From assembly GCA_016191085.1 (NCBI GenBank), contig JACPPJ010000004.1:1-43845 (forward strand): DNA of 43,845 nt. Reading direction: 5' to 3'. The position numbers and the translations under genes were made by a program. Below the pieces are notes generated by a model. The model saw only the letters and a program-made list of their open reading frames with translations, made no database searches and was not told the DNA's origin. Below, one piece after another: positions 34,662 through 41,433 of this stretch. Within the stretch, counting starts at the first letter, position 1, and every line of letters starts with the position of its first letter. Origin of the DNA: Acidobacteriota bacterium (GTDB lineage Bacteria; Acidobacteriota; Terriglobia; 2-12-FULL-54-10).

Positions 34662-35633
34662 CTAATTCTGTTGTGCTGGCGACCTCAACATCAACCTCTT
34701 GCCGCCAGTCATCTTGAGGGCTATAACGGCCCGCTCCATATCGGGGAGCCGCCGTACGTTGTAACGCCAGTCAAACTCTCTCAAATACTGCCCCAAATAT
34801 TTCTTGCTCCAATGGTGGTACACACCATAGTTGCCGCGTTTCAGAATTGAGAAATAGCCTTCAATAGTGTTGGTGGTGATGCACTGGCCGTCTTCCATGC
34901 GGACGTACTCTTTTGCGCGATGGTTTACATGGGAGTGCTTCCGCTTGCTCCCCGCGCTTGCCAATACATTTGAACTGTCGGTCATCAGGTGCGCGTCCTT
35001 CGCAACCATTTCTTCCACAATTGGCCGGAGATTCGCGGCGGTGACGCGCTCCATGTATTGTGACCGCACACCCCCGCCACGTTGCAACACGGATACAACC
35101 GCTGCCTTTTGATCGAATGGTCCTGGAAAGTCGCGCGGCCTTTCACCGGGCTTGGTAGCACGCGAAACGGTATAGCGACGCTTTCCTCCGATGTAGGTTT
35201 CGTCCATCTCCACCACGCCATCAAGAGCCTCTTTGATTGGTTCTTGCGTTAGCGCCCAGCGAATGCGATGAGCCATGAACCATGCGGAGCGGTAACTTCC
35301 GATTTCGAGGTTTCGCATTAACTGGTGCGCGGAAATACCTTTCTTGGACGAGGCCATCAGATGAATCGCCAGCAGCCATTTGTGAAGCGGAATATGTGAA
35401 TCTTCAAAGATGGAGCCGATGGTAACAGTGAATTGCTTGCGGCATCCACGGCAGTTCCACACGCCCTTGCGGACGGCTTTATTGGAACCTGGACGTGGCT
35501 CTAGCTTGGTAGCTTCGTTGACCAATCCACAGTGCGGACACTCTGGACCGTCAGGCCAACGCTGCTTTTCGATGTGCTCTCTTGCGGCATCTTCATCGCG
35601 GAACTGTGGAGCAAGCAACCCTGGTTTCTTCAT
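34662..35633 (-). mobile_element. IS1595-family (ISXO2-like) insertion sequence, transposase
   Basis: 323-residue DDE transposase, apparently intact. An N-terminal zinc ribbon (CPHC...CRGC, then KQFTVTIGSIFEDSHIPLHK) marks the IS1595 group. Catalytic residues: Asp in MDETYIGGKRRYTV, Asp in HLMTDSSNVL and Glu in NTIEGYFSILKRGNYGVYHH. A promoter, TTGACA (complement of 35663-35668) with TTAAAG, lies just upstream. I could not find paired terminal inverted repeats in the flanks, so the ends of the element are not set. Confidence 0.88.
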
Positions 35634-36362: not shown

Positions 36363-36471
36363 ATCAATTAACGCTGCCGAAAAGCGGCCGCAGCGGCTCA
36401 CGCATTGTGAATCGCTGCGCCCCATTCATGCAAACCGCTCCGTCAGAGGCCAGCTACACGGGGCTATCTCA

Positions 36472-38727
36472 TCATGGCTCTGCAGTAAACATCTCCGGCA
36501 GATAGAACGTCAGGACCGCATTAAGCCGCATGTCGGAGACGATGATTTCTTTGTGCTTGGGGTTGATGACTACACCGCGAGGCTTTTTCATTATGTTGGA
36601 TGGCTTGCCATCGATTCGCCAGCGCGGCGGCACATCGCCTTTGTCGTTAATGCTCCAGATACCGACGAATGTGCCTTGCGGCTCCGGATCGACGCCCGAG
36701 GTGATCTGGCTGACCACAACGTATCCACCCTGCGGATACATGGAAAGCTGGCGCGTGCCGATCAGTCCGGTCTTCGGTCCCGTGATGATCGCCTTGGGCT
36801 TGGCATCGCCCTGATCGGTGCGATTGAAGATCAGCAGGGCGGCTTGCTGCTTTCCATCGACTTCTATCCCGGCCGCATTCACCATCACATTGTGGATGGG
36901 ATCAACTGCGATGCCCCCCTGTCCTAGGCCTCCGCTGTAGCGCAATGTCCGCAGCGGCGCCACGTCGCCTTGCGCGCCAAGCTTAAACACGTGAACTGAA
37001 CCCGTGTCGGGGACAAAAATCTCGTTGTGAATCGTGTCTATTTCCAATACATCGGGAGTCTTCAATTGGGTGCGCGGCCCTTGAATAATCCGCACCGGCG
37101 CTTCCTCGCCACCCGCTGCTCCGCGGAAAGCAAGAACGGCCTGCGCGAAAGGATTAGTTACGTAGATCTCGTCGTGCACCGCATCGTACCGGATATCGTG
37201 CATAGTGCGTCCAAGCTTTGTCTTCTGCCCGGCAATGATCCTGCTCGGTGCCTCTCCTCCGTTCGCCAGCCTGGCGAACACCGCGATCTGCGGGTGGGCC
37301 ACTCAGTTGGGCACCAAAATCTGATCGCGTTTAGTGTCGTAGCCGACCGCGCCGGGGTTCCCGATATCCAGCGCCACCTTTCCTGCCGGAGCCGCGCGGA
37401 TCGTACGCAGGGGCGCTACGTCGCCATTCGCGGTCCGCGGATAAACCGTAGCCGAATGATTGCCCATATTGGCGACTACCAACTCGTTGTTCTTCTTATC
37501 CAGGAACACTCCCGTGGGGTTCTTGATCCCGGTCTTCGATCCCTTGATTACGCGTGTCGGCGCAACGTTCCCCTTATCGCCGCCCTTAAACACAAGTATT
37601 GAATCGCCTGTATCATTGGCGACGTACAGGTCGCTGTGTTCTTCGTCGAAGTAGATTTGCGCCGGCCAGTTGAGCTGCGTCTCGGGCCCTTCGATAACGC
37701 GCAGCGGCGCAACGTCGCCGACTCCGTTCATCGGGTACACAGTAATTGTGGGCGGGTGGTAGGCGCCGGAGCCCGGCACCATAACCTCGCGCCGTTCGCG
37801 TTCGTCAGGAATCTGCCAGCCGCCGCTGACCGACGGACGGCGAGTAAAATTCTTTCCGTCTTTGCTGGAGGCCACCGACCCGTGATTGGTAACGTACATT
37901 ACTTTATTCTTGGTATCGAGCGCGATGCCGTGCGGATCTGCCAACAGCGTCCGATTACCCTCGATGATGCGAATCGGTGCATCGTCGCCCTTCGCCATCT
38001 TGTGATACACCACAATTGCCGGCGGGTGCTCGACTGTCAAGAAAAGCTCCTGCGCTTCCTCATTCACCGCGATGCCAAAGGTTCGGTGTGGGGTGTGTAA
38101 GGCGCGAGTTGGAGGAACATTCCCCTTCGCCTCCCGCGAAAACACCGTCATGGTATCGATGGTGTCGTTATTGACAGAATAGATGTCACCGTTCTTGGGG
38201 TCCACATACAGCCCGCAATTGAATTCGACGTGCGTAGCGGGGCCACCAATGACGCGCTTCGGCTCGGTCATGGTCGCCGTGGGCGGGGTATTCGCCAGCC
38301 GATCGTAGGTCATGATCTGGAAAAGATTCTCATCTTGCAGGATGATTTCATTGTGAACCGAATCCACGACAACGGCGCTATAGGTGGGGTAAGGATCCCG
38401 AATCATGCGCACCGGAGGGCGGTCAATCGAGGTGCTGCCCTTGATGTCAGCCGCTGTACTCCTGGCCGCCGCTCGCTCCTCCTGAACGGCCGCGATCAGC
38501 CGCTGCTGGCTGCTGGCGGGCTGCCATTGGCAGCTCTCCCCCTCCATTTCAGGGAGCGGCTCGATTGAAACAAGTTGCGCTTCTCCGGTGGGCCGCAGCG
38601 ACCGCAAAGCCGCCTGGCTCCGGTCCGCCGGTTGTAACGCACCACCGCTAAGTAAAATGACAATAGCCGCAGTGACCGCCAGAGCTACGGTAACTCCTGC
38701 GCGATGTTCACGGATCTTGCGTGTCAT
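36472..38727 (-). CDS. Exported beta-propeller protein A, in-frame UGA (candidate selenoprotein)
   Basis: Read across the UGA at 37305-37303, this is one 751-codon protein. Residues 1-30 are a signal anchor. The rest is a series of repeats with the core GDVAPLRxIxGPxTxLxxPxGIxxDxxxxEiyVxN, a YncE/NHL-like beta-propeller fold. UGA is codon 475, directly after ILVPN and before VAHPQI; it splits one blade, and the second part alone has no signal peptide, so two separate proteins make little sense. The protein otherwise holds exactly two Cys (66 and 171), both conserved in paralogue B. An alternative is coupled termination and reinitiation at the GTG that follows the stop. No export or redox partner is adjacent; role unknown. 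Confidence 0.75.
37261..37305 (-). promoter_or_regulatory. Recoding site in gene A: UGA plus SECIS-like hairpin
   Basis: The UGA (37305-37303) is followed, 23 bases later, by a perfect 8-bp hairpin GTTCGCCA-GGC-TGGCGAAC (37279-37261). The apical loop begins with GG at +32 from the UGA, inside the 16-37 base window known for bacterial SECIS elements, which need a guanosine in a small apical loop. The hairpin is shorter than the E. coli fdhF element. Confidence 0.5.
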
Positions 38728-38820
38728 GTGTGATATCTCCCTCGCTTATACAGGCTCAGAGCAGCCTCATTAAACCCCGGTATTGCACCGCTGATGAAAG
38801 CTGATGGTGTGAGAAACCGA

Positions 38821-38867
38821 GCCGCCAGAAAACAATGGCGGCGATCCGGGGAGGACCCGAATCGCCG
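38821..38867. repeat. Overlapping hairpins between the two propeller genes
   Basis: GCCGCCA (38821-38827) pairs with TGGCGGC (38836-38842), and CGGCGAT (38839-38845) with ATCGCCG (38861-38867) around an inner CGGG/CCCG. The two stems share bases and are mutually exclusive. On the minus strand they lie just after gene B, so they may act as a terminator or attenuator before gene A, but no U-run is evident. Confidence 0.4.
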
Positions 38868-38914
38868 CTCTTACAAGCTTCGCCGTAAAGTCAGACTTAT
38901 ACCGCAGTATTCCC

Positions 38915-41113
38915 CTAGAAAATTTCAGGGAAGTAGTACGTCAACACGGCGTTCAGCCGCATGTCGGCGATGATCAGCTCTTTATGCTTCGGGTTGAGCA
39001 CCACACCGCGAGGTTTCTTCATCTCGCTTTTGGCGTTGGCGTTGATCCTCCACCGCGGCGGAACATCGCCGTTATCATCCATGTTCCAAATCCCGACGTA
39101 AGCGTTCTTCGGCTCCATGTCCTGGATAGGGCCGGGCTGGGTGGCCACTATCAGTTTGCGGGCGGGATTCAGCGCTATTTGATTGATGCGGGTGATCCCG
39201 GATTTTGGTCCCTTGATGACGGCGCGAGGCTTTACGTTTCCGTTATCGGTGCGATTGAAGATCAGGATCGCTCCGTTCGGCACCTCGCCTTCCTTTGATT
39301 CGCCGAAATTAGTGCCGCTGTTCAAACCTACCACCAAAAGATTGTTGACCGGATCGACGACTGCCGAAGTCGCCTGGCGCAGCATGGTATCCGGACCTTT
39401 AATCATGCGCAGCGGAGCAACGTCGCCGTTCGCCTCACGCGAGTAGACTCCGATTGAATCGCCCATCGGCACGATGATCTCATTGTGTACCGGATCTACA
39501 TCGAGGCGGTCGGATCCGCTCAACTGCGTTTTTGGCCCCTGGATAATGCGCTTCGGAGCAGCGTCGCCGTTGACGTCGCCGGCAAAGGTCAGCACAGCCT
39601 GCGCAAACGGGTTGGTTACTACGAATTCATCGTGAGCGGCATCGTACCGGATGTCATGCATGGTACGGCTGAGCTTTGTGGATTGTCCTGCTAGGAGCCT
39701 GACGGGCATGTCGCCGCCCTTCGCCAACCTGGCGAACATCGCAATCTGCGGATGGGCCACTCAGTTCGGAACCAGAATTTGCTCGCGCTTAGTATCGTAA
39801 CCGACTGCGCCCGGATTGCCGATCATGAGCGAAAGCTCGTTAGCCGGTCCGCCCCGGATGACGCGCTTCGGAGCCACGTTGCCGTTCGCGTTCAGCGCGA
39901 ACAAGGCGGCTGTGTGATTACCCATGCTGGCCACCCAGAGTTCCTGATTCTTCAGGTCCAGCGCGAGGCCTGTGGGATTCTTTATCTTGGTCTTGGATCC
40001 TTTGATAATCCGTGTCGGCGCAACGTCGCCGTTATCTGTGGTCTTGAAGACGACGATAGAATGATCCATATCGTTGGCGACATAAAGCTCTTCGCGTTCC
40101 TCATCGACGGCGATCTGCATGGGCCAATTCAGCGTGGTCTTGGGGCCGGAGATGACGCGCACCGGCGCGGTGTTCCCCTGGGCATCACGCGGATACACCG
40201 TGATGGACGGAGGATTCAACTTACCAGAACCGCGCACAAACCCGCGCCGGCTCGTGGATTCTTTCCCACGATAAGAAACGCTGCCGTGATTGGTGACGAA
40301 AATGAGGTTATTTCTCGAATCCAACGCGATCCCGTGGGGATCCTCCAGACGCGTGTCATCGCCCATCAGCTCGCGGAGCGGCTTGTCATGTCCGGAAGCG
40401 AACTTCGGATAGACGATAACCTCATTGTTGTGCTGAATGGTGAGGAAGAGTTCTTTGCGCGCGTCGTCAACAGCAATGCCGAACGTGCCGTGGGGGACGG
40501 CCAGCCACCGGTCGGGCGGCACGTTTCCGCGCGCGTCCTTCGAGAACACTGCAAGCCAGTCTTGCGTATCGTTGTTGACGATGTACGTATCCAGCGTCAC
40601 CGGATCAATGTAAACGCCGCACATCATCTCCGCTTTAGTGAGATGCCCGCCGATGATGCGCTTGGGCTCGGTCATCCTGGCGTTCGGAGGAGTATTGTCC
40701 AGGCGGCTGTACTCCAGGATTTGGAAGAGGTTCTCGTCCGTAACCACCAGCATGTTGCTATTCGGCTCAACGGCAATGGCGCTGAACGATGGATTCGGAT
40801 CACGTATGCTGCGTACAGGAGGACGATCAAGGTCGGTGGAGGGCGTATCCGCTGCCGCCATGGCGCTGAAGAGCGATCCAGTTATCGGCGAGGTTGCCGA
40901 TGCCGGCTGCCATTCGCACATCTCGCTCTCCACCTGCGGCAGTGGCGCCACAGAAAGCAGTTGCGGGGCGCCGGTGGGCCGCAGTCCGCGAGTTTTCTCC
41001 GCTGTTGTGCGGACTGGTTCGCCACCGCTGAGAAGTACCCAACCCGCTAGTACTGCGATGACGGCTAGCAGAATGACTGCATTTCTCGAGAGTTTCAGGG
41101 TAATTCGATTCAT
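38915..41113 (-). CDS. Exported beta-propeller protein B, in-frame UGA (candidate selenoprotein)
   Basis: Tandem paralogue of gene A, upstream of it on the same strand; GGAGG 5 bases before ATG 41113. 732 codons read across UGA (codon 451, 39763-39761), again between ILVPN and VAHPQI. It has a signal anchor (NAVILLAVIAVLAGWVLLSG) and the same repeats (DNGDVAPTRIIKGSKTKI and so on). Its only cysteines, 66 and 165, match those of gene A. Synonymous sites around the UGA differ between the copies (CAG/CAA, GTG/GTT, CCC/CCG before it; CAC/CAT, ATC/ATT after it) while the UGA itself is unchanged. Two independent nonsense mutations at one codon are improbable; preservation after duplication is the simplest reading. 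Confidence 0.75.
39720..39763 (-). promoter_or_regulatory. Recoding site in gene B: UGA plus SECIS-like hairpin
   Basis: The same arrangement as in gene A. UGA is at 39763-39761, and a 7-bp hairpin TTCGCCA-GGT-TGGCGAA lies at 39736-39720, with the loop GGU starting at +32. Only one loop base (C to T) differs from gene A across this 17-base stretch, and the stem is unchanged. Confidence 0.5.
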
Positions 41114-41433
41114 AAGTCCTCCGTCACGTCAACTCGTTAAATCGGGTCGGCACTGGTTCACCGCACAATCCCATTGGGGAACACGACAGCACCACGACCC
41201 GACGAATCAGCCATTTCATACTGACTGTTTGATCTTACGAATAATACCACAGCCGCGTCAGGCCAGATAAGTGCAATTTCTTCCGCGTGTGCATACCAGT
41301 ACACTCCGGGAGAATTCCATTACAGTATTAGGTGCGCTAGGGCATGTTTCATATCTCTGCAGGCAGATGTACGGCTTGGCCATCGAGTTGCCCATGAACG
41401 AGTTGCCCATGAAAAGGGCGGTTCTAAGGGGGC
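41114..41433. other. Intergenic region with a 15-bp tandem duplication
   Basis: 320 bases between divergent genes, A/T-rich in the middle. CGAGTTGCCCATGAA occurs twice in tandem at 41384-41398 and 41399-41413. A frame on the plus strand crosses it (MNELPMNELP) but has no support. A promoter for each neighbouring gene is expected here; none is clear-cut. Confidence 0.5.

What the first reader, a model, noticed from the sequence alone, without database searches (positions are those of the whole stretch)
36472..41113. Tandem paralogues both carry an in-frame UGA at the same codon
Genes A and B each have one in-frame TGA between ILVPN and VAHPQI. In both, the frame stays open afterwards, the beta-propeller repeat continues mid-blade, and the second part has no signal peptide although the first is exported. 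Surrounding synonymous codons differ between the copies, but the UGA is kept. UGA is an ordinary stop in neighbouring genes (the pcrA-like gene, gdhA), so this is not a changed code. The simplest reading is selenocysteine insertion or another UGA recoding in a propeller family I do not know as a selenoprotein.
Basis: partly seen in the sequence, partly recalled or inferred. Interest (0 to 1): 0.93.

Follow-up and report, generated by a model that had tools for sequence, protein, structure and literature searches.

The report
Giant family of propeller selenoproteins
Two neighbouring genes of an apparent acidobacterium, and 19 more copies found elsewhere in its genome, carry a UGA codon exactly where relatives have cysteine, followed by a conserved predicted RNA hairpin, so the UGA is likely read as selenocysteine, which would make this a so far unlisted selenoprotein family with unusually many copies per genome.

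Summary
Genes A and B each have one in-frame TGA (37303-37305; 39761-39763, minus strand). Of 120 listed homologues, 85 have Cys there, 33 are entries ending exactly one residue before it, one has Trp, one a gap. All 21 copies found in the window's genome carry the TGA. Over 89 distinct TGA sites a hairpin UUCGCC-AGGNU-GGCGAA lies at one distance: all six pairs form in 83, against 17% after synonymous resampling; its loop Arg is AGG in 78 of 81, against 7% elsewhere in these genes. 83 of 89 meet the published bacterial SECIS model. The genome has tRNA-Sec and selA; selB and selD were not found in this 88%-complete assembly, but occur in 12 and 13 of 15 genomes examined. UGA also ends gene A. 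The protein is predicted to be two six-bladed NHL propellers, Sec in the first blade of the second. Neither a 2026 inventory of 119 families nor NCBIfam holds it. Sec insertion is near-certain but chemically unproven; the enzymatic role is inferred and weak.

The parts
36472..38727 (-). Gene A: predicted double-propeller protein of about 750 residues, one internal TGA, terminator TGA
   Evidence: homology over both halves
37303..37305 (-). In-frame TGA of gene A (predicted Sec475)
   Evidence: aligned with Cys in homologues
37262..37278 (-). Predicted bacterial SECIS hairpin of gene A: UUCGCC-AGGCU-GGCGAA
38915..41113 (-). Gene B: paralogue of 731 residues plus the TGA residue, one internal TGA, terminator TAG
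39761..39763 (-). In-frame TGA of gene B (predicted Sec451)
   Evidence: aligned with Cys in homologues
39720..39736 (-). Predicted bacterial SECIS hairpin of gene B: UUCGCC-AGGUU-GGCGAA
36472..36474 (-). Terminator TGA of gene A, followed in frame by a second TGA: UGA as a stop of the same gene

Best explanation
Each of the two genes encodes one protein, predicted to be exported and to fold as a double beta-propeller, in which the internal UGA is likely read as selenocysteine under the direction of a predicted SECIS hairpin whose loop begins 30 nucleotides downstream. Shown: the TGA/Cys exchange, the silent-site conservation of the hairpin with a few compensatory changes, tRNA-Sec and selA in the genome, and 21 copies of the gene in it. 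Inferred: charged tRNA-Sec is delivered by SelB, which binds the hairpin, while UGA codons without a hairpin terminate. Inferred with low confidence: outside the cytoplasm Sec451, in a blade turn of the second propeller and probably on the same face as invariant His486, is a redox-active residue that pairs with the almost invariant Cys66 of the N-terminal tail and acts on a sulfur or thiol compound; the many copies would differ in substrate or partner. The confidence given is for selenocysteine insertion; for the redox pair it is about 0.35 and for sulfur compounds about 0.25.
For: Cys in 85 of 120 listed homologues and truncation one residue before the site in 33. TGA at the site in 21 of 21 own copies and in 88 of 89 covering segments, some of them repeats of one gene. 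On a tree of 199 rows the Sec/Cys state changes at least 14 times, 10 forced by well-supported branches. Hairpin: 83 of 89 with all six pairs against 17% after synonymous resampling; pair 29-41 is U-A in place of C-G in 3 sites and pair 30-40 is C-G in place of G-C in 2; loop Arg AGG 78 of 81 against 7%. The same fixed-offset hairpin occurs at 6 of 37,700 other in-frame codons and at 0 of 85 terminal stops. tRNA-Sec 71.5 bits and selA 540 bits in the genome. In 15 distinct genomes (G000 and 14 others, one of these Cys-type): selB in 12, selD in 13. Propeller fold. Cys66 in 94 of 95 and 74 of 74 rows with a residue there, His486 in 165 of 165. SoxC-type gene plus cytochrome c at three own loci.
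Against: No selB or selD over the curated cut-off in the window's own assembly (88% complete). Only two Cys-type genes were available as DNA, and one of them (L094) can also form all six pairs, the other five. The hairpin has one broken pair in 6 of 89, including 3 of 21 own copies. The six-pair core alone reaches -7.5 kcal/mol in only 45 of 83; the other sites that meet the model do so by a longer stem or a smaller loop. 6.6% of random in-frame codons (116 of 1753) also meet the general model. The genomes are drafts, so copy numbers could be inflated by mixed assembly. For the function: SoxC lies at only 4 of 81 loci and none of the neighbour probes hit the window, no coordinates were available to measure distances, and Cys66 lies in a low-confidence stretch.
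Confidence: 0.95

Rival explanations
1. Two-gene reading: UGA is a true stop and the GUG right after it restarts translation, giving two half proteins.
For: GTG follows the TGA directly in both window genes and in 82 of 89 sites; a mechanical ORF list shows the halves as separate ORFs.
Against: 7 of 89 have GTC, GTA or GTT there, which are not usual start codons. 85 of 120 listed homologues are one polypeptide with Cys. The cut falls inside a predicted blade between two strands. I see no export signal at the start of the second half, though no program was run.
Confidence: 0.02
2. UGA is read as Trp or another ordinary amino acid (changed code or leaky readthrough).
For: One of 120 listed homologues, P0008, has Trp, probably from a gene caller using code 4.
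Against: UGA ends gene A, with a second TGA behind it, and ends 40 of 86 family genes. Cys, not Trp, alternates with UGA. The fixed hairpin follows the internal UGA and none of 85 terminal stops.
Confidence: 0.01
3. Sequencing or assembly error, or pseudogenes.
For: The genomes concerned are draft assemblies.
Against: The same TGA recurs in 21 of 21 own copies and across separately assembled genomes, with frames open on both sides and silent-site conservation.
Confidence: 0.01
4. Selenoprotein, but the Sec serves as a structural or metal ligand (for example with His486 and His454) and not as a redox pair with Cys66.
For: His486 is kept in 165 of 165 full-length rows; His454 in 73 of 77 Sec-type and 73 of 87 Cys-type rows. 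Sec-metal ligation is known in formate dehydrogenase (PMC13188914, section 7 part 2, read).
Against: Cys66 is almost invariant, which a pure metal site would not need.
Confidence: 0.35

Closest known systems
Bacterial selenoproteins decoded by SelB and an in-frame SECIS (for example FdhA)
   Same: In-frame UGA exchanged with Cys; hairpin with G in the first two loop positions, 30 nt after the UGA; tRNA-Sec and selA present
   Different: No entry named as a propeller among the 119 families of the 2026 inventory (Table 1 of PMC13188914, all rows read); 6 to 39 TGA-bearing copies in each of five genomes (my count)
NHL-repeat six-bladed propellers (TRIM2, TRIM3, Thin, Brat; peptidyl-alpha-hydroxyglycine lyase)
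   Different: Two propellers in one chain, Sec or Cys in a blade turn, predicted bacterial export
YncE and 6-phosphogluconolactonase (PF10282)
   Same: Names given to many homologues by their sources; PF10282 over cut-off for A, below for B
   Different: NCBIfam YncE and Pgl models far below cut-off, at most 27 bits against 370-400
Selenium-binding protein SBP1 / methanethiol oxidase
   Same: A beta-propeller linked with selenium and with methanethiol oxidation (PMC10277263, abstract start and passages seen)
   Different: Contains no selenocysteine (same passages); its Pfam family did not appear in the scan

Membership tests
Bacterial selenoprotein | In-frame UGA aligned with Cys in homologues | tested here: met
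   85 of 120 listed homologues Cys, 33 truncated at the site, 1 Trp, 1 gap; 10-14 Sec/Cys changes on the tree
Bacterial selenoprotein | SECIS hairpin in the coding sequence downstream of the UGA, as in the published model | tested here: met
   83 of 89 sites by my own implementation; terminal stops 11 of 85; random in-frame codons 116 of 1753; model read
Bacterial selenoprotein | tRNA-Sec and selA in the genome | tested here: met
Bacterial selenoprotein | selB in the genome | tested here: inconclusive
   No hit over cut-off in the own 88%-complete assembly; present in 12 of 15 distinct genomes
Bacterial selenoprotein | selD in the genome | tested here: inconclusive
   Best own hit 63.5 bits, below the 125-bit cut-off; present in 13 of 15
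Bacterial selenoprotein | Selenium shown in the protein | not testable with these tools
   needs 75Se or mass spectrometry
NHL repeat propeller (PF01436) | Pfam gathering score | tested here: met
   30.5 and 36.9 against 20 bits
YncE (NF052280) / 6-phosphogluconolactonase (NF008258) | Curated cut-off | tested here: not met
   at most 17.1 against 400 and 27.3 against 370 bits for A and B
SBP / methanethiol oxidase | Sequence family match in Pfam | tested here: not met
   the scan gave only NHL, Lactonase and Arylesterase at E up to 0.001

The most novel reading that the evidence does not exclude
Some Acidobacteria spend much of their selenium on one exported protein family: 6 to 39 paralogous double-propeller selenoproteins per genome, among the largest selenoproteomes known, forming a Sec-based periplasmic or surface redox array for sulfur compounds, with different copies tuned to different outer-membrane transporters and electron acceptors.
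Probability: 0.3. Interest if true: 0.95.

Novelty: new member of a known kind. Interest (0 to 1): 0.82.

Why it matters
It adds a selenoprotein family with a fold that the 2026 inventory does not name, where the majority of characterized members are thioredoxin-like. It suggests that one such family can reach tens of copies in a genome, against 57 and 63 for the largest whole bacterial selenoproteomes quoted there. Protein databases cut these proteins at the UGA (33 of 120 listed entries, one of them from the window itself). Sec/Cys exchanges among related copies give a natural experiment on what selenium buys.

Tried and rejected
Rejected: changed genetic code, readthrough to Trp, split genes with restart at GUG, and assembly error (see rivals). 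Rfam at E up to 5 gave no SECIS family in 36400-41200; its best match, CcsR1, lies far below its gathering score and off the site. The link between Sec and Cys165 looked strong in raw counts (111 of 111 Sec-type against 17 of 87 Cys-type), but on the tree it rests on few independent changes (sign test median p 0.5), so I do not use it as evidence. A Cys-type probe over 396 phylum genomes (at most two candidates per genome scored) brought only TGA-type genes, so the Cys-type DNA control stayed at two sequences. A phylum sample found the family in 3 of 199 genomes (E up to 1e-100, at most five candidates per genome scored), against selA over cut-off in 129 of 199: the family is not a proxy for Sec use. 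The first site filter was mis-indexed and replaced; one search printed the window hairpins one codon off, corrected. One TGA site (L096), where homology ends a few residues after the TGA, was dropped before the counts on 89. Two rows (P0008, P0076) were left out of the tree. Foldseek's first list gave only whole-chain matches with low TM-scores. A sequence search of solved structures gave only weak NHL and designed-propeller matches.
Full report
OBSERVATION. Genes A (38727..36472, minus) and B (41113..38915, minus) are tandem paralogues, 55% identical. Each has a single in-frame TGA before its terminator, at 37303-37305 and 39761-39763, in the context ILVPN-TGA-VAHPQI. Gene A ends in TGA with a second TGA behind it, gene B in TAG. 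So UGA is both an internal codon and the terminator of one gene.

HOMOLOGUES. A protein search with gene A gave 3901 relatives at E up to 0.001 among 7998 scored candidates, of which 120 are listed. Aligned at the site: 85 Cys, 1 Trp (P0008, a JGI entry, probably a code-4 gene call), 1 gap (P0076), and 33 entries of 441-494 residues that end exactly at the Asn before the site (one of them, P0003, is gene A's own first half). None of the names shown calls it a selenoprotein.

COPIES. Of seven genomes of the same family, five carry the gene (E up to 1e-40). In the own genome G000 there are 21 matches, and 21 of 21 have a TGA at this codon. One frame (L137) holds a further TGA upstream, which is the terminator of the preceding creatininase-like gene. 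In G004, by my count of the rows, 39 matches carry a TGA, one that covers the site has none (C212, with Cys), and eight are N-terminal fragments that do not reach it. By the same count G005 (100% complete, 4% contamination) has 21 TGA matches, G006 14 and G001 6. For copies not fetched, that the TGA sits at this codon is assumed from the fetched ones; a few matches are partial genes at contig ends; the assemblies are drafts and could be mixed. A scan of GTDB species genomes gave 54 loci, all in records titled Acidobacteria or Acidobacteriota, Terriglobia, or Candidatus Sulfopaludibacter. Over loci L020-L103, 98 segments matched the family: 88 TGA, 1 Cys (L094), 9 not covering the site, with some genes held twice.

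SECIS. I collected distinct 120-base contexts: 90 with TGA and 2 with Cys, dropped one TGA site (L096), and analysed 89. Counting from the U of UGA as 0, positions 27-32 (UUCGCC) pair with 38-43 (GGCGAA) around the loop AGGNU. All six pairs form in 83 of 89 (mean 5.93). Resampling synonymous codons by their use in these genes gives 4.80 +/- 0.08 pairs and 17% complete. Pairs slid by 1-3 bases form 2.1-3.9. Pair 29-41 is U-A instead of C-G in three sites and pair 30-40 is C-G instead of G-C in two, while 30-40 is broken in three. The loop Arg is AGG in 78 of 81, background 6.7%; G34 is invariant and 35 is G or U. The published bacterial model asks for a 3-9 nt loop, a stem of 4-16 bp, G in the first two loop positions, 16-37 nt from UGA to loop, and energy at or below -7.5 kcal/mol (PMC13188914, passages seen). 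By my implementation 83 of 89 meet it, against 6 of 40 terminal TGAs, 11 of 85 terminal stops and 116 of 1753 random in-frame codons; the six-pair core alone reaches -7.5 in 45 of 83. The exact hairpin at the exact offset occurs at 6 of 37,700 other in-frame codons and at 0 of 85 terminal stops. In the own genome 18 of 21 copies form all six pairs and 3 lack one. Against: of two Cys-type genes with DNA, L141 forms five pairs and L094 all six, so the hairpin alone does not separate Sec from Cys types. The 89 sites are related by descent; the resampling test keeps each protein sequence but not the tree.

MACHINERY. Own genome: tRNA-Sec with anticodon TCA, selA 540 bits, no selB and no selD over cut-off. 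The assembly is 88% complete. One search covered 19 handles; four repeat others by identical coordinates, leaving 15 distinct genomes: selB in 12, missing in G000, G006 and G215. selD over cut-off in 13 of 15, missing in G000 and G215, and 12 of those 13 selD genes themselves hold one TGA. tRNA-Sec scores over the cut-off in 12 of 15, and 65 bits or more in 11; G212 with 48.8 bits may be another tRNA. G215, the genome of the Cys-type gene L094, has none of the three over cut-off. SelA was searched only in G000 and the phylum sample, where G137 and G154 have it; not in the other relatives.

EVOLUTION. On a FastTree of 199 rows from residues 95-450 (112 Sec-type, of which 33 are labelled so only because their entry stops at the site; 87 Cys-type), the state changes at least 14 times, 10 forced by well-supported branches. 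Repeated Sec/Cys exchange is a usual mark of selenoproteins (recalled).

NEIGHBOURS AND FUNCTION. At three own loci (L135, L136, L140) copies lie beside SoxC-type sulfite dehydrogenase genes (491 and 458 bits against a 420-bit cut-off for the two scanned) and a small cytochrome c. In 81 family loci, which differ in length and partly overlap, SoxC and the cytochrome occur in 4 and outer-membrane receptors of the OMP_b-brl_4/TonB kind in 27; the window itself matched none of the eleven neighbour probes. No background rate was measured. This suggests, weakly, redox or transport work on sulfur compounds outside the cytoplasm.

NOVELTY. The 2026 review (PMC13188914; Table 1 read in full, part of the reference list, otherwise passages) lists 119 families; none is named as a propeller, and the words propeller, NHL and lactonase do not occur in its text. 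It quotes 57 and 63 selenoprotein genes as the largest bacterial sets. deep-Sep (PMC12013277, passages seen) reports nine new families; the passages name no propeller. NCBIfam of June 2026 has no model over cut-off for the four proteins scanned. Literature searches showed no report of this family in the rows listed (20 of 170, 20 of 230, 15 of 23; all rows in the others). The library lacks preprints and most subscription journals; Haft and Tolstoy 2025 is not held (its families are in Table 1), and Deng 2026 was not looked up. So it is unreported only as far as these searches reach.

VERDICT. A new family of a known kind: bacterial selenoprotein, Sec insertion 0.95; redox pairing with Cys66 about 0.35; action on sulfur compounds about 0.25.

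Noticed in passing
G001:C197:6211-8094 (L110) and G001:C17:10596-12518: This genome carries two full-length SelB genes over the cut-off (432.9 and 380.7 bits); two decoding factors could serve different SECIS classes.
   Followed up: no
window 37281-37302 and 39739-39760, and the same place in 89 sites: Codons 4 and 7 after the TGA are also frozen at silent sites (CCG 85 of 86, GCG 81 of 83) and could form a small hairpin CCGC-AGAUU-GCGG before the main one. The published model does not ask for it.
   Followed up: partly
G000:C34:4108-24418 (L128, L129): Five copies of the family lie within about 20 kb on one contig, partly alternating with TonB-type outer-membrane receptor genes.
   Followed up: partly
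13 selD genes of relatives (L145-L149 and others): 12 of 13 selD genes contain one in-frame TGA, so SelD itself is likely a selenoprotein here.
   Followed up: no
G000:C26:84000-92000 (L139): One copy lies next to genes for a NrfD/polysulfide-reductase-like membrane subunit and an iron-sulfur subunit (QrcC-like, 300 bits, below its 400-bit cut-off).
   Followed up: no
window 34662-35633 (minus): ORF that looks like an IS1595-type transposase (by eye, recalled, no call) about 0.8 kb beyond the end of gene A.
   Followed up: no
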